Origin: Geminicoccaceae bacterium | GTDB lineage: Bacteria > Pseudomonadota > Alphaproteobacteria > Geminicoccales > Geminicoccaceae | Length of the DNA: 35,339 nucleotides | Reading direction: 5' to 3' | Assembly (NCBI GenBank): GCA_020445645.1 | Contig: JAGRGG010000033.1 | Span: forward strand, 1 to 35,339 | Shown: in pieces, positions 1 through 16,408 of the stretch | Numbering within the stretch: the first letter of the stretch is position 1 | Layout: every line of letters starts with the position of its first letter | Position numbers and translations under genes: made by a program | The notes under the pieces: generated by a model | The model's database searches: none | Told to the model about the DNA's origin: nothing | Seen by the model: only the letters and a program-made list of their open reading frames with translations

Positions 1-22
1 TCAAATCCTGCCCCCGCAACCA
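1..22 (+). tRNA. 3' end of initiator tRNA-fMet (partial)
   Basis: The first 22 bases read as the T-loop, the 3' strand of the T stem (CCTGC), the acceptor 3' strand CCCCGCA, discriminator A and an encoded CCA at 20-22. This ending is nearly identical to the 3' end of bacterial initiator tRNA-fMet, as I recall the E. coli sequence. The rest of the gene lies to the left of the window, so the anticodon and the C1xA72 mismatch cannot be checked. A hairpin terminator follows 22 nt later. Confidence 0.8.
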
Positions 23-44
23 CAAGACGGCACGACACGTGACC

Positions 45-79
45 AAAAGCCCGCAGCCACAACAGGTTGCGGGCTTTTT
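45..79 (+). terminator. Rho-independent terminator after tRNA-fMet
   Basis: A 13-bp stem pairs 46-58 with 65-77, with one G-T wobble and a 6-nt loop (ACAACA), and runs into five T residues at 75-79. The A run at 45-48 means the hairpin could also act on minus-strand transcripts leaving the decayed gene that ends at 174. Confidence 0.85.
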
Positions 80-173
80 GATTTCGGGGCCTGCCTCCAG
101 CGCAACACCTGCAGGAAGCATATGGGAAGCACGGGGCACGCGGTCCTGGATCTTGCCTGCCCCATTGGCCGGC

Positions 174-2063
174 TCACGGCCACCACCGCGCCGCATCCCG
201 CACCGCCCGTACCGCCTCGCCAGCCAAAGCCGAGCCGCCCAGAGCCGCCAGCGTCGGCGCGAGCCTGCCAAGAATGTCGAGCGCTTCGCTACGGCGCATC
301 TGGCCAAATAGCGCCACGGTCTCGTCCACGACCTCCTTCCGCCCGGCCCCGCTCAGGTGCCAGCTGACCCGCGTCCAGTTTCCGCACCGTATCGCGGCCC
401 CAGCGCACGAAGCCGGCGCGGGTCTGCTCCAGCGCCGGCCCGCCGGCGAAATGGTCGTCGTGGAAGTAGGCGGCGGGCTTGGGGTGGGTGAAGACGTAGC
501 CGCTCTCGAACCCGTCGCCGATCAGGAAACGCCGCAGCGGCGCCAGCGTGTCTTGCGTGATGATGCGTTCGATCCCGTGCGCCGTTCGCGCGACCTCGGC
601 GAGTTCGGCCAGCTTCAACGGGCCGAGGGCGCAGGCCAGTACCGCCAATAGCGCGTCGCGGGTGGCCTCATCGATTGGTGTCCCCTCCGCCTTCCAGGCA
701 CGCTGCTGATGCTCCCACCACGTCCTGAAGTAGCCACTGAAGCCGGGATCCAGCGCGCGAAGGTCGTCCGGCCGAAGATCGAGCGCCGCCTCGCCCCTGC
801 CAAGCAGGTCTTCGACGTAGAGTTGGATGAGGAAGGGCTCGCCCTCGGTCAGGCGCGTCAGTTCGCCCAGCACGTCGACGTCGGCCGCCAGCGGGGCGAG
901 TGGTTAACCCATCCGCTCGATCACGTCCTTGATGCCGTCCCGGTCGAGCAGCGGCACCAGCATCGTTGCTGCCGCGCCCCGCCGCTCCCGGCCGAGGCGG
1001 CGCAGCCAGCCCTTGGAGCCGTCGTCGTCGGCCAGAAGGCGGGCCGAGGCCACGATGCGCAGGCCCGGCGGCGGGTCGAGCGGCAGCACGCTCGTGTTGA
1101 CCTCTCAGCCGGCCGCCTCGTCGAGGCCGTCGATTACGACGAGGCAGCACCGCTCGCATTCGTGGAACAGGTCGAGGTACTCGATTACCTCGTCGCGGTA
1201 GGATGAGGCGGGATCGACGTTGAGGGTCTTGCCGTGGATCTCGGCCAGACGCGCGGCCAGCGTCCCGTAGAAGACCTCGGCGCGGTTGGTCTCGTAGCGG
1301 ATGCTGATCGGCACGAAGACGGTCGGCCATATGTTTATGTCGAGTTGGTCGAGCCAGTTGGGCGGCGCGTCGGGATCGGCCAACCAATCGTTCAACGCGG
1401 CCAGTTGCTTGCCACGGCCACCGAAGGGTACAGGCGTGCGCGGAGTGCCTAGATAGCCTTGAATAAAGCGCTTGATGAGGCTGCAATTGCTGATCGAGAC
1501 CGCCCGCAACCCGAACTGAACGATAATGTTTCCGCCGGCGGTGTTGTTGCTGAGGTTGAGGGCGAGACCGGCGCCGTGCGGCCCCGCCCCTACCGGTTTC
1601 CCGCCTGATCCTCCGCCAAGTCTGTCGCCGTCGTGTCGTGCAACTTGAAGTTCCTGACAGCCTTGGCGCCATCGACGCGGATGCCGCCGCCCACGGCCTT
1701 GAGGTTCTTGAGGATGATCGAATGCCCGGCCTTGATGTTCCGCAAGTCGATCAGCATCTTATCGGAGGCGTCGCGGGGCTGCGCCTGAAGCAGCGCCTTG
1801 CCTGGACTCTCAACCAGTCCCAAGGCCTCCTCGTCCTGCACTACGCCGGCGGCTTCAATTTCCTCGGCGAGTACCTGCTTGCGACTTTCCCTTGCTGGGT
1901 CTTTCTCAAGCGCCGCGACATCCAACGATGCGAACTTACGCGAGACGAGGCCTTTCAGACCCGTGTAAGCGTCCTGAACGGCGGCGTAGCCGGCGCCGCT
2001 CGCGGCCACGATGGCCCCGGCGCTGAAGGCATCGACGATGGCTTGAAGGGCTTCGGCGGGCAT
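174..2063 (-). pseudogene. Decayed STAND/NACHT-type NTPase gene
   Basis: Pieces of one protein can be followed through several breaks. The N-terminal part (2063 to about 1600, starting MPAEALQAIVDAFSAG) is a helical domain and then a Gly/Asn-rich, beta-like segment. After a frameshift near 1590-1605 the frame continues into an ATPase module: a GGR-containing entry at about 1430, a TVFVPISIR strand, and a Walker B-like CLVVIDGLDE at about 1120. Where this family normally carries its P-loop, the sequence jumps from ADPDAPPN straight to WLDQLDINIWP near 1355-1365, so Walker A looks deleted in frame. An in-frame TGA lies at 1105-1107 and an in-frame TAA at 904-906. The helical C-terminal part runs to about 365, where a second frameshift is needed to reach the tail (LGRLAPTLAALGG) ending at 174. 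Family assignment is from motif style; its former role, possibly in defence or signalling, is inferred. Confidence 0.75.
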
Positions 2064-2194
2064 GATCCAAACTCCGACGCTTCCTATTTACGCCAGAGAA
2101 GCTCAAAGGTCATGGTGGGCCAGGGTTGGGTTCGTCCTGGCCGATGAGGAGCCGCAGGCGCTCCCGTCCCTTCGCTGGCTCGGCAGGTGGTGGA

Positions 2195-2762
2195 CTAGAT
2201 GTTGGGTCCCGCGGTGTTGTGGACCGGGTTGAGCCTGGAGCGTCGGGGCTCTTCGGTCCAGCATTCGGTGATGAACCCGAAGGGCGTGAGGTTCTCGATG
2301 CGGGCCTCGGCAAGATCGACGTGAACCGAAAGCGGCACCTTCAAGGTCGATCGGGTAGCGCTTGAACCTTGAGCATCGCGGTTTGTCGCCCCCGGTTTCA
2401 GGCGGGCGCGAGACGGCGTGGCGCCGCAGGCGGCGGTGCAGCGACGAGCGTGCGAGACGCGGGATGGTGGCCTGTGCAGGGCATGAAGGCCATCGTCGAA
2501 CGGCGGCAGCGTGTGGCGGCGAAAGGCGACGCAGACGGCTTCTTCTGACGGCGTCGGCACCCCGAGCGCGGGAGCTGCGGCCCCATCGGCGGGTCGTCGA
2601 CGCCCGTGCGCTTGCGCCCCCTCCCGGCCGCTCGAAAGCGCTGCTTTCAAGCTCGTTCAGGCCGTACCGCCCGGCGGGCCTTGTGACCGAAGCCTGCGAT
2701 CGCCGTAGCGCCGCCCGAGTGGCGTGCGTGGTCGTGGCGCTGCCGTGAAGAACTTGGCCCAT
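2195..2762 (-). pseudogene. IS481-family transposase remnant
   Basis: The start at 2762 (MGQVLHGSATTTHATR) followed by a helix-turn-helix region, then VAFRRHTLPPFDDGLHAL, ARSSLHRRLRRHAVSR, GGDKPRCSRFKRYPI and the C-terminal ENLTPFGFITECW, match the order of blocks in IS481-type transposases. The blocks alternate between two frames, with shifts near 2650, 2475 and 2335. Around 2300 the sequence jumps from the first catalytic strand (HVDLAEAR) to the extreme C-terminus, so the second Asp and the Glu of the DDE triad are gone. About 190 residues remain of roughly 310-320. I could not find terminal inverted repeats or a target duplication. It cannot encode an active enzyme. Confidence 0.8.
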
Positions 2763-2938
2763 GGCGCGTCCCCCTCGTCAGGCGATGGCAACCTCCCGCC
2801 ACACTGCGGGACCGAACAGCCAGTCGTGGAACTTCTCGGTCGTGCCGAGGCGGCGGTGGCGGCAGGGCAGCCGTGGAACGGATCCAGAGCGACGCTACCG
2901 ACTTGCCCGCGCGTCTTCTCGCCGCCAAAGGCGCTGCT

Positions 2939-3337
2939 TCATGGCCCCAGCGAGACGTGGGCGCTGACGACGCGCCATCCTTCGGCAAAGCGAACCCACG
3001 TCTGGCTCTGGCGGCCGACGCGCGGCTCGCCCTCGCGCCGGAATTCGAGGTTGGCGACCGCCACGTCGTCGCCGAAGGTCGTGATCTCCAGCCGACGGAC
3101 GGTGCGGTCGAGGCCCTTGGCGCTGCGGGATCCCCTGAACGCCCGTATCTCCGCCTCGCCGTAGAGGTTCTCCCGGGCGCCGTAGCGGACCGTGTGGGGG
3201 CTCGCCCAGAACAGTTCGTCGAGCACGGCGAGGTCGTTGCCGGTGAGGGCGGCCTCGTAGCGCATCACGGCCGCCCGGACCTCGGCCTCGACCGTGGGGC
3301 GGTTGATCGCAAGGGCCGCATTGGCGGGCGTTTCCAT
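2939..3337 (-). CDS. HpxZ/AtzH-like protein (DUF3225, NTF2 fold)
   Basis: A 132-residue protein of the small alpha+beta SnoaL/NTF2-like group that includes HpxZ (oxalurate catabolism) and AtzH (cyanuric acid catabolism). Typical blocks are NRPTVEAEVRAAVMRYEAAL, the LDELFW segment, TVRYGARENLYG, IRAFR, and the C-terminal QTWVRFAEGWRVVSAHVS. The ATG at 3337 is used here; a GTG at 3343 overlaps the stop of the upstream amidase gene and is an equally possible, translationally coupled start. It is the last gene of the minus-strand operon that begins with the binding protein at 10471. In this family such proteins sit beside amidases and are thought to act on small ureido or carboxyurea compounds; the substrate here is unknown. 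Confidence 0.85.
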   Translation of the reverse strand: METPANAALAINRPTVEAEVRAAVMRYEAALTGNDLAVLDELFWASPHTVRYGARENLYGEAEIRAFRGSRSAKGLDRTVRRLEITTFGDDVAVANLEFRREGEPRVGRQSQTWVRFAEGWRVVSAHVSLGP

Positions 3338-3339
3338 CG

Positions 3340-4575
3340 TCACGCCGTCCCCGGATCGGTTCGGGGCGGGTCCGCGCAGACGGCCGCCGCGAGGGCGATG
3401 AGGTCGGCGTCGGTGCCCCTGGCGCCCACGAGCGACAGGCCGATGGGCAGCCCGTCCACCTCCGCCATCGGCAGGGAGATTTGCGGCAGCCCCCCGAGCC
3501 CCGCGACGCACAGGAGGTTCATCGCCTTGTGGCGGTAGGCCACCTCCAGGTCCTCGGCGGCGGAGCCGCGGCGGGGCGCGCCGCGCGGTACGGTCGGCAG
3601 GACGAGTGCGGTGCCAAGCGGCAGCAGCCCCGCCAGCCGTTCGACGACGGCCCGGCGGCGCTCGCGCGCGTCGGCGACCCTGGCGGGGTCCGTCGCCGCC
3701 GCGGCGGCGAAGCGTTCCCGGACGCCGGGGCCGAAGACCGGCCGGACCGCCTCGATCCAGCCGCCCAGCGACCCCCAGATCTCCGCCGCCTGGATAGTGC
3801 GGAAGGCCTCCGACCAGACGGCCAGCCCCTCGTCGGCCAGCGTCACGCGTGCCACTGGCCCGACCGCCGCCTCGACGCGGGCGATGGCGGGCGCCAGCGC
3901 CCCGGCCGCCTTCGGATCGAGTTCCGCCAGCGCGTCCACGGCCAGCAGCAGCCTGACGATGGGCCGGGCGGGGGGATCCCCCAGGAGCACCCCGCCGACG
4001 CGGGCGAAGAGGTCCACGTCGCGGGCGAACCAGCCGGCGCAGTCGAAGCTCGGCGCGAAGGGGATGGCGCCTTCGAGCGAGACCCGGCCGTGGGTCGGCC
4101 GCATCCCGTAGAGCCCGCAATAGCTGGCGGGCACGCGGACGGAGCCGCCGCAGTCCGACCCGAGGGCGAAGTCGACCAGCCCGCCCGCCACCGCCGACGC
4201 CGATCCGCTCGACGATCCGCCGGGGATGCGCGAAGGGTCGCGCGGGTTGACCGGCGTGCCGTAGTGGTGGTTCTCGCCGGACAGGGAGTAGGCGAGCTCG
4301 TCGCTCACCGTCTTGCCGACGAGGGTGGCGCCCGCGTCCAGGAGCCGCCGCACGACGGGCGCCGTCTCGGGCTCGACCCCGTGCGTCCGCAGCCAGTCCG
4401 GATGACCGTAGCCGGTGACGCCGCCCTCGACGTGGAAGACGTCCTTGACCGCGAAGCTGAGGCCGGCGAGGGGGCCGGTCGCCGCCCCCGCGACGGCGAT
4501 GTGGTTGTCGCGGCAGAACGCGCCGAGCGGGTCGTTCGGCGGCGTCCAGCCCGCCGTGGGGCCGGCGGCGCTCAT
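3340..4575 (-). CDS. Amidase-signature hydrolase, AMI1-like
   Basis: A 411-residue amidase-signature enzyme expected to hydrolyse a C-N amide bond in the cytoplasm. The Ser-cisSer-Lys triad can be placed as Lys44 (FAVKDVF), Ser121 (GGSSSGSA) and Ser145 (SDCGGSVRVPA). The length and blocks such as VTGYGHPDW and DELAYSLSGENHHYGTP resemble the compact AMI1 (indole-3-acetamide hydrolase) branch rather than the longer GatA branch. The ATG at 4575 overlaps the stop of the amidohydrolase gene by 4 nt (ATGA) and has GGGAGG just upstream, so translation is probably coupled. Its pairing with an HpxZ/AtzH-like protein and a deaminase-like amidohydrolase suggests it cuts a ring-opened ureide or amide intermediate. 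The exact substrate cannot be read from sequence. Confidence 0.88.
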   Translation of the reverse strand: MSAAGPTAGWTPPNDPLGAFCRDNHIAVAGAATGPLAGLSFAVKDVFHVEGGVTGYGHPDWLRTHGVEPETAPVVRRLLDAGATLVGKTVSDELAYSLSGENHHYGTPVNPRDPSRIPGGSSSGSASAVAGGLVDFALGSDCGGSVRVPASYCGLYGMRPTHGRVSLEGAIPFAPSFDCAGWFARDVDLFARVGGVLLGDPPARPIVRLLLAVDALAELDPKAAGALAPAIARVEAAVGPVARVTLADEGLAVWSEAFRTIQAAEIWGSLGGWIEAVRPVFGPGVRERFAAAAATDPARVADARERRRAVVERLAGLLPLGTALVLPTVPRGAPRRGSAAEDLEVAYRHKAMNLLCVAGLGGLPQISLPMAEVDGLPIGLSLVGARGTDADLIALAAAVCADPPRTDPGTA

Positions 4576-5810
4576 GCGGCCTCCCGCCCCGGCCGGTGCA
4601 GCTCGGCGGGCTTGCGGGTCATCGTCCGGCGCCCGCGCTTGAACGCGTGGAGCACGGGCGCCAGCTCGGCCACCGCCGCCTCGGGGGTCTCGCAGTCGAG
4701 GACGACGAGGTCGGCCCAGTCGCCGGGGGCGAGCCCGTAGCCGGACAGGTTCATCAGCCGCGCCGAGCGGGCCGTCACCATGTCGAAGCAGGCCCGGATG
4801 TCGTCCTTGGCGCCGATCTGGCAGACGTTCGCGTTCAGGTTCGCCATGCGGATCAGCGAGCAGTCGCCGAACGGGGTGAACGGGTTCAGGACGTTGTTCG
4901 TCGACAGGGAGCAGTTGACGCCCCGGTGCAGCAGCTTGTGCGCCGGCGTCACGCCGCGCATGACCGAGTGCTCCATGTGCCGGCCCATCAGGAAGAGGTC
5001 GGTCGAGGGCAGGACGGTGAGGGCGACGCCGGCGTCGGCCATGCGGCGGGCGGCCGCGTCGAAGCGTTCCGGGGAGGCCGCCGACAGCTTGGTGACGTGG
5101 CCGATGGCGGTGCGGCCGCCGCGCCCGAAGCGTTCGGCGAGATCGCAGACGTAATCGAGGTCGAGACCATCCGGGGACGGCCCGAAATCGAGGTGCATGT
5201 CGATGTCGACGTCGAATTCGCGGGCCATCTCGAAGACCCGGTCGATCTGGCCGTGGGGATCGGCGTCGGTGTAGGGCGCCGCGCCGACGACGGAGGCGCC
5301 CCCGGACAGGGCCGCCAGCATCAACTCGTCGGTGCCGGGGTTGTTCAGCAGCCCTTCCTGGGGAAAGACGCAGATCTCGACGTCGATCGCCCAGCGGTAG
5401 TCCTGGACGAGCCGCTTCACCCCCTCGAAGCCGCGCAGGCCGATGCCGGGGTCGACCTCGAGCTGGGTGCGCATGTGGGTCGTGCCGTTGAGGATGCACT
5501 TTTCGAGCGTGCGCCTGCCGCGCTCGTAGACGTCTTCCGGCGTGAAGCCCCCCTTGGCCTTGGCGACCTCGCCGATCGCCTCCTCAAGGTCGCCGCGCGA
5601 GGAATTGCAGCGCTCCAGGATGCACGACTTGTCGAGGTGGATGTGGGTCTCGACGAACCCCGGCGAGACGAGCCGGCCGCCGAGGTCCAAGGTTTCGCCC
5701 TCGGCGGCGAGCCTGGGTTCGACGGCGGCGATGCGGCCCCCCTCGATCCCGATGTCGACGGTGCGGGTGGGGTCGTCCGGCAGGCGGGCGCCCCGCAGGA
5801 TCAGGTCCAT
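4572..5810 (-). CDS. CodA/AtzC-like amidohydrolase
   Basis: A 412-residue metal-dependent amidohydrolase (TIM barrel with an N-terminal beta domain) resembling cytosine deaminase and AtzC. Likely metal and active-site residues are His56 and His58 (ETHIHLDK), Gln151 (VFPQEG), His206 (DIDMHLDFG) and His238 (AIGHVTK). Where CodA has the catalytic Asp (GHDDV) and AtzC has SDN, this protein has STNNV, so Asn305 occupies the expected Asp position. The start at 5810 is preferred: AAGGA lies 6 nt before it but directly abuts the alternative ATG at 5816. It is co-transcribed with the transporter genes upstream (gap 31 nt) and overlaps the amidase by 4 nt. Deamination or ring opening of an N-heterocycle is inferred; the substrate is unknown. 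Confidence 0.85.
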   Translation of the reverse strand: MDLILRGARLPDDPTRTVDIGIEGGRIAAVEPRLAAEGETLDLGGRLVSPGFVETHIHLDKSCILERCNSSRGDLEEAIGEVAKAKGGFTPEDVYERGRRTLEKCILNGTTHMRTQLEVDPGIGLRGFEGVKRLVQDYRWAIDVEICVFPQEGLLNNPGTDELMLAALSGGASVVGAAPYTDADPHGQIDRVFEMAREFDVDIDMHLDFGPSPDGLDLDYVCDLAERFGRGGRTAIGHVTKLSAASPERFDAAARRMADAGVALTVLPSTDLFLMGRHMEHSVMRGVTPAHKLLHRGVNCSLSTNNVLNPFTPFGDCSLIRMANLNANVCQIGAKDDIRACFDMVTARSARLMNLSGYGLAPGDWADLVVLDCETPEAAVAELAPVLHAFKRGRRTMTRKPAELHRPGREAA

Positions 5811-5841
5811 GCGCATTCCTTCGGCTTTCGGTTGGTCACGG

Positions 5842-8352
5842 TCACGAAGCGGTCGCCGCCTCCCCGCCGAGATAGGCCTTTTGCAGCGCGTCGCTCCGGC
5901 GCAGTTCGGCCGCCGTTCCGCTCTCGACGACGGCGCCGGAACCGAGCACGTAGGCGCGGTCGGCGACGCCGAGCGCCATCTCCGCCATCTGGTCGACGAG
6001 GAGGATGGTCACGCCGCCGTCGCGCAGTTCGGCGAGGATCGCGTAGAGTTCCTGGATCAGCGCCGGCGCCAGCCCGAGCGACGGCTCGTCGAGCAGCAGC
6101 ACCTTGGGCCTCGAAGCGAGCCCCCGCGCGATGGCGAGCATCTGCTGCTCGCCGCCCGACATGAGCCCCGCGCGCTGGCCGCGGCGCTCCTGCAGCCGGG
6201 GGAAGCGGGCGATGATCCTCTCCACCTCGGCGTCGAGGTCGGGCGGCATCCGGCCGTAGGCGCCGAGCCGGACGTTCTGGATCACCGTGAGCTCGGGGAA
6301 GACCTGCCGCCCCTCGGGCACGAGGACCAGCCCGCGCCTCGCCACCTCGTGCGCCGGCAGGGCCTCGATCGCCTCGCCGTCGAAGAGGACCCGCCCGCGC
6401 ACCGGTCGGTGCAGGCCGCTCAAGGCGCGCATGAGGGTGGATTTTCCGGCGCCGTTCGCGCCCAGCACCGCGACCAGCTCGCCTTCGGCGACGGAGAGCC
6501 CCACGTCGCGCAGGACGTCGCTCGCACCGTAGGCGGCGCAGAGGCCCGAGACGTCGAGGATCCGGCGCCCGGCCCCGGTCGATCCGGCCCCGTCGCGCGC
6601 ACGTCCGGCGAGATCGGCCTCGCCGAGATAGGCCTTGAGCACGGCGGGGTCTTCCCGGACCGTCTCGGGCGCGCCGTCGCAGATCTTCTGCCCGGCGTCG
6701 AGGACGAGGATCCGGTCCGATATTCCCATGACGAGCGGCATGTCGTGCTCGATCAGGATGACGCAGCGCCCGAGCCCGGCGAGGCGCTTCAGGAGCCGCC
6801 CGACGCGCGCCGTGTCCTCCTCGCCGAGGCCCGCCGCGGGCTCGTCGAACAGGAGGACCTGGGGTTCGAGCGCCAGCGTCCGGGCGATCTCGACGAGCCG
6901 CTTGTCGATGTGGGCGAGCGATCCCGCCTCGACCGCCAGCGGGCCTTGGTAGCCGACGAAGGCGAGCAGCGCTTCGGCCCTGGCCCGACGCCGGGACGTT
7001 TCGGCGGCGCCGGCGAATTCCGCGAGGCTCAGCCGCCCGCGGCGCATGGCGATCAGCAGGTTGTCGACGACGCTCATGTGCTCGAAGAGCTGCGTCGTCT
7101 GGTAGGTGCGGCCGATGCCGGCGCGGGCGACCTCGTGGGACGCGCGGCCGGTGAGGTCGACGCCGCCGAGCCGGACCGACCCGGCGGTTGGCCTGTAGTA
7201 GCCGGCGATCAGGTTGAGCGCGGTCGTCTTGCCGGCGCCGTTCGGCCCGATGATGCTGGTGACGGCGCCGGGTGCCGCCTCGAAGCTCAGGTCCTGGACC
7301 GCCTTGACGCCGCCGAAGGCGATCGAGAGGCCGTCGACGACGAGCGGCGCCGCTTCGCCGGAAGACCGCAGGAAGGCCGGCGCCGCGCCGTCGCCCGAAA
7401 CGGGGGTGCCCTTCGCCTTGCCCCCGATCAGGCGCGTGACCAGGGACGAGAGGCCGCCGACGATGCCGCGCGGTGCCAGCCGCAGCACGACGAGGAGGAG
7501 AAGGCCGACGAAGAGCAGCCGGTACTCCGCGAGGGAGGACAAGGCTTCGGGCAGGAGCACGACGATCGCGGCGCCGACCAGGGGGCCGAGCACCGTGTCG
7601 GCGCCGCCGATCACGACGACGAGCAGGAACAGGATGGACTCGAAGAAGGGGAAGGATTCGGGGCTGATGAAGCCGCTCATCGCCGCGAAGACGCCGCCCG
7701 CCACCCCGGCGAACACGGCCGAGAGGGCGAAGGCGACGCAGCGCAGCCACACCGGGTTGAGGCCGATCGACTGCGCCGCGATCTCGGAATCGCGCAGCGC
7801 CCGCAGCGCCTTGCCCCAGGCGCCCCCGCTGAACCTCGCGTAGAAGACGACCGCGAGCACGGCGAGCGTGAGCACGAGGAGCGCTATCCCGCGCTGCCGG
7901 AACGAGGCCCCGAAGAGCGAGGGCGGCGCGATCCCCATGATGCCGTTCCAGCCGCCGGTCAGCCCCTCCATCTCGGCGGCGCTCTGCTCGACGACGAAGG
8001 CGAACGCGATCGTGATCATGGCGAGGTAGGGACCGCGGACGCGCAGCGCCGGGATCGACAGGAGCCCGCCCGCCGCCCCGGCGAAGAATCCTGCGGCCGG
8101 CAGGGCGAGCCAGAAGCTCCAGCCGTAGCCGGCGGTCAGGATGGCGACCGTATAGGCGCCGATGGCGTAGAAGCCCATGTGGCCGAGGGAGATCTGCCCC
8201 GACAGGCCGACCAGGATGTTGAGCCCGACGCCGACGATCGCGGTGAGCCCGACCAGCGACAGGACGAATAGGTGATAGCCGTTGGCGTTGAGGATCGCGG
8301 CCACGAGGAGGCCGATCAGCGCGGCGCCGATCAGGAGGTTGCGGGCGCTCAT
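5842..8352 (-). CDS. Fused LivM-LivG-LivF ABC transporter protein
   Basis: A single 836-residue frame joins three usually separate subunits of the branched-chain-amino-acid/urea (HAAT) importer class. Residues about 1-320 are a LivM permease with many membrane segments (starting MSARNLLIGAALIG, with GLNILVGLSGQISLGHMGF). Residues about 330-590 are a LivG ATPase with Walker A GPNGAGKTT near 370 and Walker B VLLFDEPAAGL. Residues about 600-836 are a LivF ATPase with Walker A GANGAGKST near 635, signature MSGGEQQ near 733 and VLLLDEPSLGL. The LivG half carries LAHIDKR in place of a normal LSGGQ-type signature near 480. The ATG at 8352 overlaps the stop of the LivH gene (ATGA). No stop or shift is seen at the domain joints. 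The cargo is probably the compound processed by the downstream hydrolases. Confidence 0.9.
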   Translation of the reverse strand: MSARNLLIGAALIGLLVAAILNANGYHLFVLSLVGLTAIVGVGLNILVGLSGQISLGHMGFYAIGAYTVAILTAGYGWSFWLALPAAGFFAGAAGGLLSIPALRVRGPYLAMITIAFAFVVEQSAAEMEGLTGGWNGIMGIAPPSLFGASFRQRGIALLVLTLAVLAVVFYARFSGGAWGKALRALRDSEIAAQSIGLNPVWLRCVAFALSAVFAGVAGGVFAAMSGFISPESFPFFESILFLLVVVIGGADTVLGPLVGAAIVVLLPEALSSLAEYRLLFVGLLLLVVLRLAPRGIVGGLSSLVTRLIGGKAKGTPVSGDGAAPAFLRSSGEAAPLVVDGLSIAFGGVKAVQDLSFEAAPGAVTSIIGPNGAGKTTALNLIAGYYRPTAGSVRLGGVDLTGRASHEVARAGIGRTYQTTQLFEHMSVVDNLLIAMRRGRLSLAEFAGAAETSRRRARAEALLAFVGYQGPLAVEAGSLAHIDKRLVEIARTLALEPQVLLFDEPAAGLGEEDTARVGRLLKRLAGLGRCVILIEHDMPLVMGISDRILVLDAGQKICDGAPETVREDPAVLKAYLGEADLAGRARDGAGSTGAGRRILDVSGLCAAYGASDVLRDVGLSVAEGELVAVLGANGAGKSTLMRALSGLHRPVRGRVLFDGEAIEALPAHEVARRGLVLVPEGRQVFPELTVIQNVRLGAYGRMPPDLDAEVERIIARFPRLQERRGQRAGLMSGGEQQMLAIARGLASRPKVLLLDEPSLGLAPALIQELYAILAELRDGGVTILLVDQMAEMALGVADRAYVLGSGAVVESGTAAELRRSDALQKAYLGGEAATAS

Positions 8353-9224
8353 ACCTTCTTCACCGCGGCGCGGCCGAACAGGCCCTCGGGCCTGAGGGCG
8401 AGGGTCAGGATGACGAGCGAGAAGGCGACGATCTGCGTGTAGGTCGACCCGAAGGACGCCGTGACCGTCGCTTCCAGGACGCCGTAGAGGAGCCCGGCGA
8501 TCATCACCCCCCACGGGCTGCCGATCCCGCCGAGGATGGCGACGGCGAAGGCCTTGATGCCGAACAGGGTGCCCATCGTCGAGGAAACCGTGAACAGCGG
8601 TGCGATGAGGATCCCGGCCACGCCGGCGAAGAAGCCGGACAGGGCGAAGGCGGCGGTGACGGCGGCGCCGACGTTGATGCCCATGAGGCGGGCCGCGTCC
8701 CCGTTCTGGACCACGGCCAGCATCGCGGCGCCGTGCCGGGTGCGGCGGGCGAACAGCGTCAGCGCGAATGCGAGGCCGAGTCCGACCAGGGGGATCAGCA
8801 TCTGCTGGAGCTGGACCCGCACCCCGCCGACCGCGAGCGATTCGGTGACGAGGAAGGTCGGTGGCATCCCGCGCGGGTCCTTGCCGAAGGTGAACAGCAC
8901 GGCGTTGTCGACCACGATGCCGAGCGCCACCGTCGCCATCAGCCAGCCGTCCGAGCCCCGCCGGACGAAGGGTCGGACCGCGACCCGCTCGACGGCGACG
9001 CCCCAGGCCGCGCAGAGGAGGAGGGCCGCGACGATCGCCGCGGGGAGGGGCCAGCCGAGGGTCGCCCAGAAGGTGAAGCACAGCACGGCGCCCAGCATCA
9101 TCGTGCTGCCCTGGGCGAAGTTGACCGTGTTGGAGACGGCGTAGGTGACGTAGAAGCCGAGGGCCAGGAGGCCGTACATGCTGCCGAGCCCGAGCCCGAT
9201 GATCATGGCCGAAATGATGAGCAT
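8349..9224 (-). CDS. LivH-type ABC transporter permease
   Basis: A 291-residue inner-membrane permease of the LivH/UrtB class, with about eight hydrophobic segments and class-typical stretches (GLGLGSMYGLLALGFYVTY, NTVNFAQGSTMMLGA, GIKAFAVAILGGIGSPWG). It should pair with the LivM part of the fused protein encoded next, whose start codon overlaps its stop. The ATG at 9224 is chosen because AGGGG lies about 8 nt upstream and the hydrophobic part begins right after it; a longer in-frame start would add an Arg/Pro-rich leader with no membrane character. It is separated from the binding-protein gene by 71 nt containing a strong hairpin. Confidence 0.92.
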   Translation of the reverse strand: MLIISAMIIGLGLGSMYGLLALGFYVTYAVSNTVNFAQGSTMMLGAVLCFTFWATLGWPLPAAIVAALLLCAAWGVAVERVAVRPFVRRGSDGWLMATVALGIVVDNAVLFTFGKDPRGMPPTFLVTESLAVGGVRVQLQQMLIPLVGLGLAFALTLFARRTRHGAAMLAVVQNGDAARLMGINVGAAVTAAFALSGFFAGVAGILIAPLFTVSSTMGTLFGIKAFAVAILGGIGSPWGVMIAGLLYGVLEATVTASFGSTYTQIVAFSLVILTLALRPEGLFGRAAVKKV

Positions 9225-9257
9225 CCGTTGCCCCTGCCGCGCCTTGAGGGGGTGGCG

Positions 9258-9289
9258 GGCCGGACGGCACCTTCGAGGGCCGTCCGGCC
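9258..9289 (-). other. Intercistronic hairpin between binding protein and permease
   Basis: A perfect 11-bp stem pairs GGCCGGACGGC (9258-9268) with 9279-9289 around a 10-nt loop, 6 nt after the binding-protein stop codon. There is no T run on the minus-strand side, so it is not a standard terminator. Hairpins in this place often protect the upstream mRNA segment and keep binding protein in excess over membrane subunits; that role here is inferred. Confidence 0.7.
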
Positions 9290-9295
9290 GCCGAC

Positions 9296-10471
9296 TCACT
9301 CGGCGGGAACGATCCTGTCGCCGTCGTACCGCACCATGACGTAATCGTCCGGCCCGAGCGCGTCGTGGTCGTCGGGCGAGAAGGGCTTCTCGTAGGTCTT
9401 GATGAGCCCCTCATACGTGCCGTCGAGGTTCTCCAGCGCCTCGCGGACGGCGTCGCCGTCGGTGCCGCCGGCCTGCTCGATCGCCATCCCCAGGAGGTGC
9501 ATCGCGTCGTAGGCGTTGGCCGTGCCGACCGGCGAGACGACCTCCTCCGGCCCGGCGACGCCGTACTTCGCCTTCAGCTCCTCCAGCACCTTCTTGCCGG
9601 CGGGACCCTGATCGCCGAAGAAGCTGTAGGTCTGGACAAAACGTGCATCGCCCGCCGTCGGTCCGGCCAACTCCGGAAAGCGTCCGCCGGAGATCCCCCA
9701 GTGCGACACCACCGGCACGTCCCAGCCCATCCGCGCGCGCGACTTCATCATCTGCGCCCCGGGCGGCGCGTTCACCACCAGGACCACCGCCTCGGCCCCG
9801 GCGTCCTTCAGCCGCGTCAGCTGCGGGGTCATGTCAACGTCGGTGGATTCGAACTTCTCGGTGCCGACGATCTCGACCTTGTCGTTCGCCTCGTCGGCGG
9901 CTTCGAGCCCCTTCTCGTTGGACTGACCCCAGGGGTTGTTGATCAGCATCAGGCCGACCTTGTGCGCGCCAAACGCGCCATTGGCGTAGTTCAGGAGCTT
10001 CACGTCGACGAGCGCGTCGACGGCGGAGACGCGAAAGACGTAGTTCGGATCGGCGTCGTTCTGGGTGATGCCCGTGGCGGCGGCCCAGACGCCCATGAAG
10101 GGGACGCCCTCCTGGTTGGCGAGCGGCACGATCGCCAGCGAGACCGGCGAATCGATCCCGCCGATGATCGCCGCGACGCCCTCGTTGTAGATCAGCTCGC
10201 GCGCCGCCAGGAGGCCCTTCGGGGGCTTGGACTCGTCGTCGCGCTGGACCAGCTCGATCATCCGCCCGTCGAGGAGGCCGCCGGCCCCGTTGATCTCGTC
10301 GATGGCGATCTGAAGCCCCCGCGTGATCGCCTCGCCCGACTGCGCCGAGGCGCCCGACAGGGCGGCCACTTGGCCGATCCTGATCGGGTCGGCGGCCGTC
10401 GCGGCCGTCGGCGCCCAGGCGAGAGCCATCGCCGCGCCCGCTAGAAAAACGCCCTTCGGGTTGGTCTTCAT
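9296..10471 (-). CDS. HAAT-family periplasmic substrate-binding protein
   Basis: A 391-residue type I periplasmic binding protein of the LivJ/UrtA/amide-binding group. It has a Sec signal peptide (MKTNPKGVFLAGAAMALAWA, cleavage expected after the ATAA region), then the family start IRIGQVAALSG and ITRGLQIAIDEINGAGG, and IIGGIDSPVSLAIVPLANQ in the first lobe. The ATG at 10471 has AGGGAG about 8 nt upstream and starts a clear signal peptide; a longer in-frame start would bury it. It is the first gene of the minus-strand operon, divergent from a TetR regulator. The ligand is not evident: the operon ends in amidase and amidohydrolase genes, so a urea-, amide- or ring-containing nitrogen compound is more likely than a branched-chain amino acid. 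Confidence 0.92.
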   Translation of the reverse strand: MKTNPKGVFLAGAAMALAWAPTAATAADPIRIGQVAALSGASAQSGEAITRGLQIAIDEINGAGGLLDGRMIELVQRDDESKPPKGLLAARELIYNEGVAAIIGGIDSPVSLAIVPLANQEGVPFMGVWAAATGITQNDADPNYVFRVSAVDALVDVKLLNYANGAFGAHKVGLMLINNPWGQSNEKGLEAADEANDKVEIVGTEKFESTDVDMTPQLTRLKDAGAEAVVLVVNAPPGAQMMKSRARMGWDVPVVSHWGISGGRFPELAGPTAGDARFVQTYSFFGDQGPAGKKVLEELKAKYGVAGPEEVVSPVGTANAYDAMHLLGMAIEQAGGTDGDAVREALENLDGTYEGLIKTYEKPFSPDDHDALGPDDYVMVRYDGDRIVPAE

Positions 10472-10489
10472 GAAGCTGCTCCCTGACCG

Positions 10490-10508
10490 GGCCATTCCTC
10501 GAATGGCC
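10490..10508. promoter_or_regulatory. Palindrome in the divergent tetR control region (candidate operator)
   Basis: GGCCATTC (10490-10497), CTC, GAATGGCC (10501-10508) form a perfect 8-3-8 inverted repeat, 19-37 nt upstream of the binding-protein start. It is well placed to be the TetR operator, or else a 5'-UTR hairpin. The same intergenic region (10472-10689) also holds a smaller AAACGTTT dyad at 10614-10621, closer to the tetR start. I could not identify confident -35/-10 boxes for either direction. Confidence 0.5.
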
Positions 10509-10689
10509 TCCTCATCGACCGCTCCTAAGCAGGAAACGTGCAAATCGCGGGGGCAAACCCTACCATACCGGCGCGAGATGCTTCTCTCCAGGATGGGGCG
10601 TCGCTATGTAAGCAAACGTTTAATACGCAGTGGGAAGCCGCGTCAACCACCTCGCGCGGCCGAAACGCACGTTCGTTGGAGGGTCGAAG

Positions 10690-11415
10690 GTGACATCAGC
10701 GGCTGTCAGGCGGTGGGCGATGAAGGAACGGGGAGACGACGAGAAGGCGCCGAGGCGCGACGCGGCGCTGACCCGCCAGCGCATCCTGGACGCGGCGCGC
10801 GGCGAGTTCTCCCTGCACGGCTACAGCGGCGGCCGCATGGACCGCATCGCCCGCGCCGCGGGCGCCAACGTGCAGATGATCTACCGGTACTTCGGCGGCA
10901 AGGACGACCTCTACTTGGCCGTTTTGGAAGACACCTACGGCCGCATACGCGCGCTGGAGCGCCAGTTGGATCTGGCCGCCCACCCGCCCGTCGACGGGAT
11001 GCGGCGCCTCGTCGAGTTCACCTTCGACTACCTCGTCGAGAACGCCGACTTCGTGCCGATCATCCGCAACGAGAACGTCGCCGGCGGGCGCTTTGCGAAG
11101 CGCTCGAAGGTCGTGCCGAACACGACGCCGCCCCTCGTCGCGGCGATCAAGGACCTCCTGGAGCGGGGCGGGGCGGCGGGCGCCTTCAGGGCCGGCGTCG
11201 ATCCCATGCAGCTCTACGTCACCGTCCTCGCGCTGTGCTTCACCCACCTGTCGAACCGGCACACGCTGTCGGTCATGTTCCAGCACGACCTCGGCGACCC
11301 CGAATGGCTCGCGCAACGTCGCCGGCACGTGGTGGAGGTGGTGTGCGCCTACCTCACCAAAGGGCCATCGGAAGGGCGGGATCAAGAACGGCATCACCAG
11401 CCGGCCTTGCCTTGA
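10690..11415 (+). CDS. TetR-family transcriptional regulator
   Basis: A 241-residue regulator with an N-terminal TetR helix-turn-helix at about residues 25-72 (LTRQRILDAARGEFSLHGYS, MDRIARAAGANVQMIYRYFG, KDDLYLAVL) and a helical ligand-binding domain. The GTG at 10690 is chosen because GGAGGG at 10678-10683 sits 6 nt upstream; the ATG at 10720 has no comparable site. It is divergent from the import/hydrolase operon and therefore probably controls it, with the ligand being the transported compound or a breakdown product. The last ten or so residues (from about SEGRDQE) are polar and may not belong to the folded domain. Repressor activity is the family norm, not shown by the sequence. Confidence 0.88.
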   Translation: MTSAAVRRWAMKERGDDEKAPRRDAALTRQRILDAARGEFSLHGYSGGRMDRIARAAGANVQMIYRYFGGKDDLYLAVLEDTYGRIRALERQLDLAAHPPVDGMRRLVEFTFDYLVENADFVPIIRNENVAGGRFAKRSKVVPNTTPPLVAAIKDLLERGGAAGAFRAGVDPMQLYVTVLALCFTHLSNRHTLSVMFQHDLGDPEWLAQRRRHVVEVVCAYLTKGPSEGRDQERHHQPALP

Positions 11416-11790
11416 GGGCAGGAGCCGGGGCTTTCCGCAGGCGGGCCGAGGCGTGGCCGATCGGCCTGAGCAGGACCCATTGCCAGCGGCGGCGCGGGTG
11501 GCGGCCACCGCTCCCCGGTGTGGCACGGCGTTTCTGCAGCCGCTCAAGGGCCGGGTCGAGGCCGGCGCTTGGGGGAGGGCACGACAAGGTCTCTCCTCTC
11601 GCCGGCGACCAATATCTCATGGGGCTGGAACGCGCCATCCGCGCGACCAACACTTGTAGAAGCGGGCTTCGATGGTGCGCAGCCGGTTCTGGTGGAGGCC
11701 TTTTGCGCGAGGCCGGCTTGCGAGGAGCCGGTGTCGTCGTAGACGCGCACGAACCGGTTGTCGCCTGAATGCCCGATCGGGCCGTCCGGC

Positions 11791-12070
11791 GCCCTTGCGA
11801 CCGCCCTTCATCTCGAACAGACAGACGAGGTCGACGCCCTTGCCCTTCCGACGAAGGAAGCCGCCCGCGGACCCCTGGGACCAGTCAAGATCGAGCTTGG
11901 TCTCACCGAAACCCACCGCCTTCTTCTCGATGCTGACGTTCTGCCCCTTCTTTTCGAGCGTGACCTTATCTTGGCAGGGGAGGGGGTTCGGTCGGCCGCG
12001 TCGATCCCGTAGGAGGCCGCGAGCGGCGCCAACCCGCCGTTGAACCCCTGGCCGACCGCCCGGAACTAGG
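11791..12070 (-). pseudogene. TerD/TerA-like stress protein fragment
   Basis: Reading minus from about 12065, FRAVGQGFNGGLAPLAASYG resembles the C-terminal end of a TerD domain. It is followed by a short Pro/Ala linker and, after a frameshift near 11975, by KVTLEKKGQNVSIEKKAVGF, GETKLDLDWSQGSAGGF and GVDLVCLFEMKGGRKG, which resemble the start of a TerA (COG4110) domain. The match fades after about 11790, where TerA proteins continue with a calcium-binding beta-sandwich. A TAG codon lies directly before the TerD-like block. This looks like a fused TerD-TerA gene that has lost most of its length. The assignment rests on remembered family motifs, so it is moderate. Confidence 0.5.
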
Positions 12071-12363
12071 GCGACGACGATCTGCTCGCCGTCGCCCTCA
12101 CCCGTCCGTATGTCGCCTGCGCAGGGCGGCGGTCATCAAGGCCCAAACGCCGGCGGTTCCGTCGGGCTTCAGGCAAAGGAACGAGCCTGCGCGGTCGTCC
12201 CGCGCCGGCCGGGGAGAGCGGCTCCAGGATGGGTTGCGGCGTCGACAGGGTGCCGCGCGCTTTTCAGGGCTGAACGGGAAGCACACAAACCGCGCGTCAG
12301 GCTCACGGCGTCCCGGCATCGATCCGGCCCTTCCGGCGGTCGCGGGCGATGCCCCGCCGCCCG

Positions 12364-12385
12364 CTTGACAGCTTGGCCACAAGCT
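12364..12385 (+). promoter_or_regulatory. TTGACA box overlapping an inverted repeat
   Basis: TTGACA (12364-12369) overlaps a perfect dyad CAGCTTG (12368-12374), GCCA, CAAGCTG (12379-12385), about 135-150 nt upstream of the binding-protein start at 12519. This is a possible regulated -35 region for the amino-acid-type transporter operon. No good -10 box at 16-18 nt spacing follows, so the call is weak. Confidence 0.3.
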
Positions 12386-12518
12386 GCGCTCATCGCGGCG
12401 ACAATACAGTGTTATGCAAGACGCGGCTCAAGTAACGGACGGGTCGCGCAAGCCCCTGGTCTCCCGACCCGTCGATGCCGGTCGGGAGCTTGAAGCGAAC
12501 CAAGGAGGAGAGCGGGAA

Positions 12519-13415
12519 ATGCCCACGAGTCGTCGACTGCACCTGTCGCTCGTCGCGGCCTTCGGCGCCGCGCTGGCGCTCATCGGGACGGGGGCCGTCG
12601 CGCAGGAGGCCTGCAAGGACCCGGAGCTGATCGAGAAGGGCAAGCTGCTCGTCGCCTACAACGGCGACATGCCCGGCACGGGCACGAAGGACGGCAGGCT
12701 CGTGGGCATCGACGGCGGGATCGTGAACTGGATCGCGGGGCAACTGGGCCTCGAGGTCGAGCCGCAGCTGATGGAGTGGGCGGCCGAGATCGAATCGGTC
12801 AAGTCGCGCCGGGTCGACGCCATGCACGGCATGATGGGCTGGAACGAGGCGCGCTCGAAGGTCATCCGCATCTCCGACCCGATCTACTACGCCGGCCCCC
12901 TGATGACCCAGAAGAAGGGCGGCGGCGTCGACAGGATCGAGGCCCTCAAGGATCTCAGGGTCGCCACGGTGCAGGGCTTCGGCTGGGTGCCGGAACTCCA
13001 GAAGGTCAACCCCGACCTCAAGCTCTACGACACGAGCGACGCGATGATCCGCGACCTCGTCGCCGGCCGCGTCGACGTGGCGTTCGCCGACCCGCCGCTG
13101 ATCCAGTACGTCACCGAGCAGCAGCCGGACCTGAACCTCGAGTCGCTCCCGGTCGCCACGCCCTACGACCCGGAACTGCCCACCATCACGGGGAACTATC
13201 AGGTCGTCATCGGCCTCTCGCAGGACGCGCCCGAACTGGAGACCTGCATCAACGAGGCGATCGCCGAGATGTGGAAGTCGTGCAAGAACCTCGAGATCGC
13301 CTCGGAGTACGGCTTCTCCGACAGGCACTGGTTCTCGCCGCCCAAGGAGAACATCCGCGTCGGCATCGACCGGCCGGAAGGCTGGCAGTACCCCCAATTG
13401 GGCGACTGCCAGTAG
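12519..13415 (+). CDS. Polar-amino-acid-type ABC substrate-binding protein
   Basis: A 298-residue family 3 (type II fold) periplasmic binding protein. The signal peptide is MPTSRRLHLSLVAAFGAALA with cleavage expected after GAVAQ. The mature part has the usual blocks: KLLVAYNGDMPG near the N-terminus, GIDGGIVNWIAGQLGLEVE, the hinge VDAMHGMMGWNEARSK, ISDPIYYAGPLM, LRVATVQGFGWV and VDVAFADPP. The ATG at 12519 follows GGAGGAG with good spacing; an in-frame upstream start at 12414 would only add residues before the signal peptide. It heads a four-gene importer operon with the ATPase and two permeases downstream. Four cysteines in the mature part (near its N-terminus, two in the C-terminal third, one at the C-terminus) could form two disulfides. 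The ligand is not predictable. Confidence 0.92.
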   Translation: MPTSRRLHLSLVAAFGAALALIGTGAVAQEACKDPELIEKGKLLVAYNGDMPGTGTKDGRLVGIDGGIVNWIAGQLGLEVEPQLMEWAAEIESVKSRRVDAMHGMMGWNEARSKVIRISDPIYYAGPLMTQKKGGGVDRIEALKDLRVATVQGFGWVPELQKVNPDLKLYDTSDAMIRDLVAGRVDVAFADPPLIQYVTEQQPDLNLESLPVATPYDPELPTITGNYQVVIGLSQDAPELETCINEAIAEMWKSCKNLEIASEYGFSDRHWFSPPKENIRVGIDRPEGWQYPQLGDCQ

Positions 13416-13464: not shown

Positions 13465-14235
13465 GTGACCGACCCGCTCCTGAAGATCGAGGGGCTGCGC
13501 AAGAGCTTCGGCGCGCTCGAAGTGCTGCACGGCGTCGATTTGGCACTCGACCAGTCGCGGAAGGTGGCGATCATCGGCCCCAGCGGGTCGGGCAAGACCA
13601 CGATCCTGCGCTGCGTCAACTACCTGGAGGTGCCGACCGGCGGGCACGTCTGGCTCGACGGCGAGCTGATCGGCGAGAAGCGCGTCGGCGACCGCTTCGT
13701 GCACCTGAGCGAGCGCGAGCTGGCGCCGCAGCGCCGGGAAATGGGGTTCGTCTTCCAGAACTTCTACCTCTGGCCGCACCTCACCGTGCTGGAGAACGTG
13801 GCGCTGGGGCCGTGGCGCGTGCAGGGCATGGCCCGGCGCGAGGCGATGGATCTGGCCGAAACGATGCTCGACAAGGTCCACATGGGCCACAAGAGGGACG
13901 AATACCCGGAGCGGCTGTCCGGCGGCCAGCAGCAGCGGGTCGGCATGGCGCGGGCGCTGGCGCAGCAGCCGAAGGTGATCCTGTTCGACGAGCCGACCTC
14001 GGCGCTCGACCCCGAACTCGTCGGCGAGGTCTTGAGCGTCATCCAGGAACTCGCCGCCGAGGGCCGCACCATGATCCTCGTCACCCACGAGATCCGCTTC
14101 GCCCGCGACGTGGCCGACGTGGTCGTCTTCATGGACGGCGGCCGGATCGTCGAGCAGGGCCCGCCGGCCGCGGTCATCGACGACCCGCGGCACGAGCGCA
14201 CCCGCCGCTTCCTCGGCCAGCTCGGCCGCGGGTGA
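13465..14235 (+). CDS. Polar-amino-acid-type ABC transporter ATPase
   Basis: A 256-residue GlnQ/HisP-like nucleotide-binding subunit that powers import through the two permeases encoded next. Walker A is GPSGSGKTT near residue 38, the Q-loop lies in FVFQNFYLWPHLTVLENV, the signature is LSGGQQQR, Walker B is VILFDEPTSALDPELVGEV, and the switch His is in LVTHE. The GTG start at 13465 is supported by GGAGGG 4 nt upstream and by the family-typical N-terminus. It follows the binding-protein gene by 49 nt and precedes the first permease by 7 nt. Confidence 0.95.
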   Translation: MTDPLLKIEGLRKSFGALEVLHGVDLALDQSRKVAIIGPSGSGKTTILRCVNYLEVPTGGHVWLDGELIGEKRVGDRFVHLSERELAPQRREMGFVFQNFYLWPHLTVLENVALGPWRVQGMARREAMDLAETMLDKVHMGHKRDEYPERLSGGQQQRVGMARALAQQPKVILFDEPTSALDPELVGEVLSVIQELAAEGRTMILVTHEIRFARDVADVVVFMDGGRIVEQGPPAAVIDDPRHERTRRFLGQLGRG

Positions 14236-14242
14236 CGGGGGG

Positions 14243-14890
14243 ATGTTCGAGCGGGTCCCCTACTACATCGGCGTCCTCCTGAAGGGCGCCACGGTCACGG
14301 TCGGCATCACGCTGGGTGCCCTCGCCATCGCGCTGGCGCTGGGCCTCGCCCTGGCGGTCCTGCGCACGACGCGGCTGCCGCTGGCCCGCCCGTTCGTCCG
14401 GTCCTGGGTCGAGGTCTTCCGCGACATCCCGCCCCTGACCCAGCTCTTCATCATCTATTTCGGGCTCACCTACGTCGGGATCCGGCTCGACCCCTTCACG
14501 GCGGCGGTGGTCGGCCTCGGGCTGAACGGCTCGGCCTACTGCGCCGAGATCTTCCGCTCCGGCTTCTCGGCGGTCCACCACGGCCAGCGCGAGGCGGCGG
14601 CCTCGATCGGCATGACGCCGATGCGGGCGATGCGCTTCGTCGTCTTCCCGCAGGCGTTCCGCGTCACCCTGCCGCCGCTCGCCAACTACGCCATCGGGCT
14701 GATCAAGGACACCGCCGTCGCCTCGGCGGTGGCCGCCCCCGAGATCCTGTTCCGCGCCCGCAACCTGACCAGCGAGACTTTCGAGACGCCGCTCATCTAC
14801 CTGCTCGTGGCGATCCTCTACTTCTGCCTCACCTTCCCGATCGCACGCCTCGTCGACCGGCTCGAAGCCCGCCGGAAGGCCTGGGCATGA
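14243..14890 (+). CDS. Polar-amino-acid-type ABC permease 1
   Basis: A 215-residue HisMQ-type inner-membrane permease with about five hydrophobic segments. It carries the DIPPLTQLFIIYFGL block near residue 60 and the coupling-helix EAA-like loop GQREAAASIGMTPMRAMRFV, followed by FPQAFRVTLPPLANYAIGL, which contacts the ATPase. It starts 7 nt after the ATPase gene, and its stop overlaps the start of the second permease by 4 nt, so the two are probably made in equal amounts and form a heterodimer. Confidence 0.94.
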   Translation: MFERVPYYIGVLLKGATVTVGITLGALAIALALGLALAVLRTTRLPLARPFVRSWVEVFRDIPPLTQLFIIYFGLTYVGIRLDPFTAAVVGLGLNGSAYCAEIFRSGFSAVHHGQREAAASIGMTPMRAMRFVVFPQAFRVTLPPLANYAIGLIKDTAVASAVAAPEILFRARNLTSETFETPLIYLLVAILYFCLTFPIARLVDRLEARRKAWA

Positions 14891-15585: not shown

Positions 15586-15770
15586 GGCTTTTCAGGGGTT
15601 TGGACCGATGTCCGCCGCCAACGCCCGACCCCGCCCTAGCGAGCCGGCCGGGGGGACCGCTTCCCGGCGTGCGGGGCCATATCTTCTTCCCGCCGGCCCC
15701 GGCGGCTATAGAATGTCTGCAACGCCGGGGCGCTTTCGGCCCTGCGCCGACAACAAGGGAGGCGAAAGCC

Positions 15771-16394: not shown

Positions 16395-16408
16395 GGGGGA
16401 CGGGGACC

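What the first reader, a model, noticed from the sequence alone, without database searches (positions are those of the whole stretch)
2939..10471. Import-and-hydrolysis operon for an unknown nitrogen compound
Six genes in one direction with 4-nt overlaps combine a HAAT-type importer with a CodA/AtzC-like amidohydrolase, an AMI1-like amidase and an HpxZ/AtzH-like protein, under a divergent TetR. The enzyme types match successive hydrolysis of a cyclic amide or ureide, but this trio does not match a pathway I know (triazine, oxalurate, hydantoin, pyrimidine or creatinine). It is the best candidate in the window for an undescribed catabolic system.
Basis: partly seen in the sequence, partly recalled or inferred. 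Interest (0 to 1): 0.7.

Follow-up and report, generated by a model that had tools for sequence, protein, structure and literature searches.

The report
Conserved ureide uptake and breakdown operon
A bacterial gene set that probably imports a small nitrogen-rich compound and dismantles it by way of oxalurate turns out to be conserved in many distant bacteria, although nobody has tested it and its key enzyme lacks a residue that its known relatives need for catalysis.

Summary
On the - strand, 2939-10471 encodes a HAAT binding protein, LivH, one 836-aa LivM-LivG-LivF fusion, a CodA/AtzC-type amidohydrolase (AmH), a PRK08310 amidase (Ami) and an HpxZ/AtzH-like protein, with a divergent TetR. The set is conserved: Aurantimonas aggregata has all seven genes in the same order, and about 20 other loci have the importer plus AmH. 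In orthologous operons, Ami-HpxZ is swapped for the oxamic transcarbamylase set (AllG, AllF, carbamate kinase, AllH), and some add an HpxW-like oxamate amidohydrolase. This points to an oxalurate-type ureido acid as the intermediate. The window's HpxZ keeps all nine AtzH pocket residues, which suits decarboxylation of an N-carboxy amide. AmH is odd: in 100 of 100 relatives the metal-binding Asp of CodA/AtzC is Asn, and CodA's Glu217 is lost. So 'cytosine-deaminase-like hydrolysis' is not established. The imported compound is unknown; a cyclic ureide that yields oxalurate, such as parabanate, is my guess. Nothing here was tested biochemically. Verdict: a real, conserved, uncharacterised catabolic operon that is a new variant of oxalurate/ureide catabolism, not a new kind of system.

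The parts
9296..10471 (-). SBP: HAAT-type periplasmic binding protein (Peripla_BP_6), 391 aa
   Evidence: PF13458, 3.8e-58; orthologues at 55-77% identity beside AmH in 21 distinct loci
8349..9224 (-). LivH/UrtB-type permease, 291 aa
   Evidence: 22 distinct loci
5842..8352 (-). LivM-LivG-LivF fusion in one 836-aa polypeptide; overlaps LivH by 4 nt
   Evidence: BPD_transp_2 28-290; two ABC_tran; LivG/UrtD-like 337-579, UrtE/LivF-like 598-830; matches in 25 distinct loci, single continuous frame where the whole gene is held
4572..5816 (-). AmH: CodA/AtzC-type amidohydrolase, 414 aa (start possibly at ATG 5810); carries the signature TNNVLNPFTPFG in which the metal-ligand Asp is Asn
3340..4575 (-). 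Ami: amidase-signature family PRK08310, 411 aa; overlaps AmH by 4 nt
   Evidence: 535 bits, cutoff 391; directly downstream of AmH on the same strand in 35 of 73 distinct loci
2939..3343 (-). HpxZ/AtzH-like NTF2-fold protein (GTG 3343 or ATG 3337)
   Evidence: about 60% identical to AtzH, all nine AtzH pocket residues conserved
10720..11415 (+). divergent TetR regulator, 231 aa from ATG 10720
   Evidence: TetR models; orthologues at 45-67% identity in 14 distinct loci
10472..10719 (.). intergenic control region; weak candidate operator TATTAAACGTTTGCTTACATAG
   Evidence: similar GTAA..TTAC palindromes in L141, L099 and L072 (suggestive only)

Best explanation
A TetR-controlled operon for using a small ureide-type nitrogen compound. 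The HAAT importer brings it in. AmH converts it to a ureido acid (R-CO-NH-CO-NH2), most likely oxalurate or an N-substituted oxalurate. Ami hydrolyses the terminal amide and releases NH3, leaving an N-carboxy amide. HpxZ decarboxylates that, as AtzH is thought to do after AtzEG, giving oxamate plus CO2. Ami-HpxZ would thus replace the AllFGH plus carbamate kinase module that orthologous operons carry. Shown: gene order, conservation, module exchange, and the conserved HpxZ pocket. Inferred: every reaction, the order of steps and all substrates. The starting compound is not identified; parabanate or a related imidazolidinone is the simplest candidate.
For: Complete seven-gene orthologous operon in L100. 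In L141 the same TetR, SBP, LivH, LivMGF and AmH are followed by AllG-AllF-carbamate kinase-AllH instead of Ami-HpxZ. E. coli AllG is 52-53%, AllF 40% and AllK 38-39% identical to these proteins, but AllH only 26-29% over part of its length. The All set occurs in 11 distinct loci; only 2 of those 11 also have Ami, against 38 of 73 others (Fisher P = 0.05, not corrected for relatedness). On the AmH tree the well-supported branches force at least 4 changes for All and 9 for Ami. A GGT-family gene closest in the PDB to 5hft, Klebsiella HpxW by my own knowledge, lies near AmH in 12 loci, with either module. The window's HpxZ keeps 9 of 9 AtzH pocket residues (PMC6219798). Ami and HpxZ genes lie within 1 kb in 17 of 54 HpxZ matches in the class sample (my count) and are adjacent in Azospirillum and Roseomonas without AmH.
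Against: AmH has Asn where CodA and AtzC have the metal-ligand Asp, and no Glu217 equivalent, so its chemistry is uncertain. Many AmH loci have neither Ami nor All genes. HpxZ accompanies AmH in only 5 of 96 distinct loci besides the window. Other recurrent neighbours (urease, molybdenum hydroxylase, N-methylglutamate-type genes) suggest more than one substrate or product. The AllH match to E. coli is weak. No biochemistry exists for any protein of the set.
Confidence: 0.5

Rival explanations
1. Hydantoin or dihydropyrimidine pathway: AmH opens a cyclic ureide to an N-carbamoyl amino acid, Ami is a carbamoylase, and HpxZ speeds loss of CO2 from the resulting carbamate.
For: Ring-opening hydrolases occur in this fold. 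In Methylobacterium currus an AmH relative sits with HyuA/HyuB-type genes and an M20 hydrolase. A hydantoin-racemase family gene lies next to AmH in L069 and an arylmalonate-decarboxylase-family gene in Ancylobacter loci.
Against: It does not explain the repeated AllFGH and HpxW-like neighbours. No hydantoinase is in the window operon. Carbamates of alkyl amines lose CO2 quickly without an enzyme (general chemistry, not tested).
Confidence: 0.2
2. Variant of the s-triazine/cyanuric acid/biuret route: AmH acts like AtzC on a triazine, Ami like AtzE or biuret hydrolase, HpxZ like AtzH.
For: AmH is of the AtzC/CodA type, Ami resembles AtzE-family amidases and the amidase-type biuret hydrolase, and HpxZ is about 60% identical to AtzH.
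Against: No atzD, atzG or atzF in the operon, and none stood out among the AmH-linked gene clusters that I scanned. AtzC's zinc ligand Asp303 is Asn in all 100 AmH relatives. Ami fails the AtzE cutoffs (203-213 bits against 426-461) but passes PRK08310.
Confidence: 0.1
3. AmH is not a hydrolase at all (binding protein, isomerase or dead enzyme), and the operon takes up oxalurate or a similar linear ureide directly.
For: Invariant loss of the catalytic Asp and of Glu217. Ami-HpxZ also occurs with a HAAT importer but without AmH in Azospirillum.
Against: The three His ligands, His246 and Gln156 equivalents and a new Asp (D273) are invariant or nearly so, as expected of an enzyme under selection. 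AmH is kept when Ami and HpxZ are absent, although the loci were found through AmH, so this is weak.
Confidence: 0.15

Closest known systems
HPX/ALL oxalurate catabolism (HpxXY-HpxZ-HpxW in Klebsiella; AllFGH-AllK in E. coli)
   Same: HpxZ family protein; AllG, AllF, carbamate kinase, AllH or HpxW-like genes in orthologous operons; same inferred intermediate
   Different: no ureidoglycolate dehydrogenase and no HpxX/HpxY; the amidase is of the PRK08310 family; an AmH and a HAAT importer with a fused LivMGF are added
AtzDGEHF cyanuric acid operon (Pseudomonas sp. ADP)
   Same: amidase of the amidase-signature family plus AtzH-like decarboxylating partner with all nine pocket residues conserved
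   Different: no AtzD, AtzG or AtzF; AmH is not AtzC (Asp303 replaced by Asn)
Cytosine deaminase (CodA) / 5-methylcytosine deaminase / AtzC
   Same: fold (TM-score 0.84-0.91); three His metal ligands, His246 and Gln156 equivalents
   Different: 26-29% identity; Asp313 is Asn, Asp314 is Asn (as in AtzC), Glu217 is Phe/Leu/Val/Ser/Met, Trp319 is Phe

Membership tests
HpxZ/AtzH (DUF3225) | full-length family match above the curated cutoff | tested here: met
   NF033625 192.4 bits against 135; PF11533 2.5e-56
HpxZ/AtzH (DUF3225) | Tyr22/Arg46 and the Arg-rich pocket | tested here: met
   9 of 9 residues, pocket as listed in PMC6219798; numbering offset of 3 inferred from residue spacing
PRK08310 amidase | score above the equivalog cutoff | tested here: met
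   534.8 bits against 391
AtzE/HpxY-type amidase | score above the AtzE cutoffs and a small AtzG/HpxX partner gene | tested here: not met
   203-213 bits against 426-461; no AtzG-like gene in the operon by inspection
CodA/AtzC cytosine-deaminase-type hydrolases | fold and the His metal ligands | tested here: met
CodA/AtzC cytosine-deaminase-type hydrolases | metal-ligand Asp (CodA Asp313, AtzC Asp303) and CodA's acid residue Glu217 | tested here: not met
   Asn in 100 of 100 relatives, 20 of 20 in the set found without a sequence motif; Glu217 position is Phe/Leu/Val/Ser/Met. The equivalent of AtzC His219 was not assigned here
HAAT ABC importer | binding protein, two permeases, two ATPases | tested here: met
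   all five components present, three of them fused; ligand not testable here
Oxalurate catabolic pathway | conversion of oxalurate to oxamate | not testable with these tools
   inferred from module exchange only

The most novel reading that the evidence does not exclude
AmH founds a subfamily of amidohydrolases with a rebuilt active site (Asp to Asn, new invariant Asp273) that opens parabanate or N-methylparabanate-type rings, products of oxidised purines or creatinine, and the operon is a first dedicated salvage route for them through (methyl)oxalurate and (methyl)oxamate. The molybdenum hydroxylase, HpxW-like and N-methylglutamate-type neighbours would be further steps of it.
Probability: 0.15. 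Interest if true: 0.75.

Novelty: new variant of a known kind. Interest (0 to 1): 0.5.

Why it matters
It would add a widespread, untested entry point to oxalurate/oxamate metabolism, explain what HpxZ/AtzH proteins do outside triazine and purine pathways, and give a testable case of an amidohydrolase subfamily that has lost a catalytic Asp yet is strictly conserved. It also makes the module swap between hydrolysis (Ami-HpxZ) and carbamoyl phosphate recovery (AllFGHK) directly testable.

Tried and rejected
Plain branched-chain amino acid or urea uptake: the binding protein and LivH score far below the curated cutoffs of both kinds of models (only the ATPase parts pass, and they pass both), and an amino-acid importer would not explain its fixed place before AmH. 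Creatinine by the classical deaminase route: no creatininase or N-carbamoylsarcosine hydrolase in the operon, and AmH lacks the CodA acid residues. Nisaea genes first taken by length for a molybdenum hydroxylase turned out to be a histidine kinase, an OmpA protein and ATP synthase subunits. A shared TetR operator between loci was not convincing. Paper searches for parabanate hydrolases gave nothing useful. Structure model: good fold (pLDDT 85) but below 50 at residues 310-316, next to N307/N308, so no side-chain geometry was read from it.

Full report
1. What is there. The window operon on the - strand reads SBP (10471-9296), LivH (9224-8349), a LivM-LivG-LivF fusion (8352-5842), AmH (5816-4572), Ami (4575-3340) and HpxZ (3343 or 3337-2939), with a TetR gene divergent from ATG 10720. 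Two details were missed: the second permease and both ATPases are one polypeptide, and not all junctions are 4-nt overlaps (three are; two are gaps of 71 and 25 nt). AmH has one 33% paralogue in the genome, HpxZ none, and Ami only distant relatives.

2. Distribution. In the window's own family no other genome had an AmH above 34% identity; in an even sample of the class, 26 of 385 genomes had one at E 1e-70 or better, the window's own included. The distribution is patchy, which suggests horizontal transfer (inference). A named scan returned 80 loci at 58-79% identity from Alphaproteobacteria, Gammaproteobacteria, Burkholderiales, Binatia, Chloroflexi and others (many are metagenome bins, so some assignments may be wrong).

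3. Conservation of the gene set. After removal of duplicates, 96 distinct loci were compared. Ami lies within 400 nt on the same strand in 35 of the 73 with enough flank. The importer (at least 50% identity) is present in 21 (SBP), 22 (LivH) and 25 (LivMGF). HpxZ is present in 5, TetR in 14. Locus L100 (Aurantimonas aggregata) has all seven genes in the window's order at 62-80% identity. HpxZ is the least constant member beside AmH, but Ami and HpxZ genes lie within 1 kb of each other in 17 of 54 HpxZ matches of the class sample (counted by eye) and are adjacent in Azospirillum and Roseomonas plasmids.

4. The oxalurate link. Gene clusters recurring near AmH were identified. Eleven distinct loci carry at least two of AllG, AllF, AllH and carbamate kinase, the oxamic transcarbamylase set that turns oxalurate into oxamate and carbamoyl phosphate in E. 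coli (PMC11326118). Against E. coli, AllG is 52-53%, AllF 40% and the kinase 38-39% identical, while AllH matches weakly, 26-29% over part of its length. In L141 this set stands exactly where the window has Ami-HpxZ, behind an orthologous TetR, SBP, LivH, LivMGF and AmH. Only 2 of the 11 All loci also have Ami, against 38 of 73 others (Fisher P = 0.05; the loci are related, so this is a description, not a proof). On the AmH tree the well-supported branches force at least 4 changes for All and 9 for Ami, so the pattern is not one inherited event. A gamma-glutamyltranspeptidase-family gene occurs in 12 loci with either module; its best solved match by far is 5hft (332 and 262 bits for the two chains, against 172 for E. 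coli-type GGT, 2e0w), which I know as Klebsiella HpxW, the oxamate amidohydrolase (the enzyme is cited in PMC5270733). The simplest reading is that both modules act on oxalurate or a close analogue and give oxamate.

5. HpxZ. The window protein is about 60% identical to AtzH and keeps all nine pocket residues, among them Tyr22 and Arg46. AtzH is thought to decarboxylate 1,3-dicarboxyurea, the product of the amidase AtzEG (PMC6219798). By analogy Ami would release NH3 from the ureido end, and HpxZ would decarboxylate the N-carboxy amide. This is inference by homology.

6. AmH. Fold and His ligands are those of CodA/AtzC, but the position of the metal-ligand Asp (CodA Asp313, AtzC Asp303; PMC4577212) is Asn in 100 of 100 relatives, and in 20 of 20 of those found without a motif-based scan; the Glu217 position is Phe, Leu, Val, Ser or Met. 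Canonical relatives in the same taxonomic family keep the Asp. D273 and D210 are invariant and could act instead (inference). The predicted model is too poor at residues 310-316 to decide. The first step of the pathway is therefore the least certain.

7. Other contexts. Urease subunits with intact active-site motifs lie directly upstream of AmH in five distinct loci. A CoxL-type molybdenum hydroxylase gene lies near AmH in four loci and a CoxM-type gene in six. GlxD/glutamate-synthase-like genes, as in the N-methylglutamate pathway, lie near it in seven. A SnoaL_2-like small protein accompanies 15 loci. These may mean several related substrates or products.

8. Verdict. Observation confirmed; interpretation partly supported. 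It is an uncharacterised, conserved catabolic operon, best seen as a new variant of oxalurate/ureide catabolism fed by a HAAT importer. The imported compound remains unknown; parabanate-type rings are a guess that fits but is not shown.

Noticed in passing
L070 7656-11296, L110 7584-11224; also L107, L127, L132, L136: A urease (fused UreA-UreB plus UreC, active-site motifs intact) directly upstream of, and sometimes overlapping, an AmH orthologue.
   Followed up: partly
L096, L097, L099, L101, L123, L154, L161: Glutamate-synthase-like GlxD genes, as in the N-methylglutamate (methylamine) pathway, lie near AmH, hinting at a methylamine-yielding substrate.
   Followed up: partly
L103 12524-17142, L125 11468-15233, L105, L106; L173 4651-8942: CoxLMS/xanthine-dehydrogenase-type molybdenum hydroxylase genes near AmH or, in Azospirillum, upstream of Ami-HpxZ.
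   Followed up: partly
L167 9489-9911 and 14 further loci: A small SnoaL_2-like (NTF2-fold) protein beside AmH or the importer, often where HpxZ is missing; below Pfam's gathering score.
   Followed up: partly
window 10472-10719: Weak palindromic candidate operator TATTAAACGTTTGCTTACATAG between TetR and SBP; a GTAA..TTAC theme recurs in L141, L099 and L072.
   Followed up: partly
window 1-2900 and 11420-13400: Stretches flanking the operon with no clean family matches among the ORFs tested; possibly decayed or mobile DNA.
   Followed up: no
window 13465-17983: A second ABC importer (ATPase plus two BPD_transp_1 permeases) followed by a GMC oxidoreductase, not connected to the finding.
   Followed up: no
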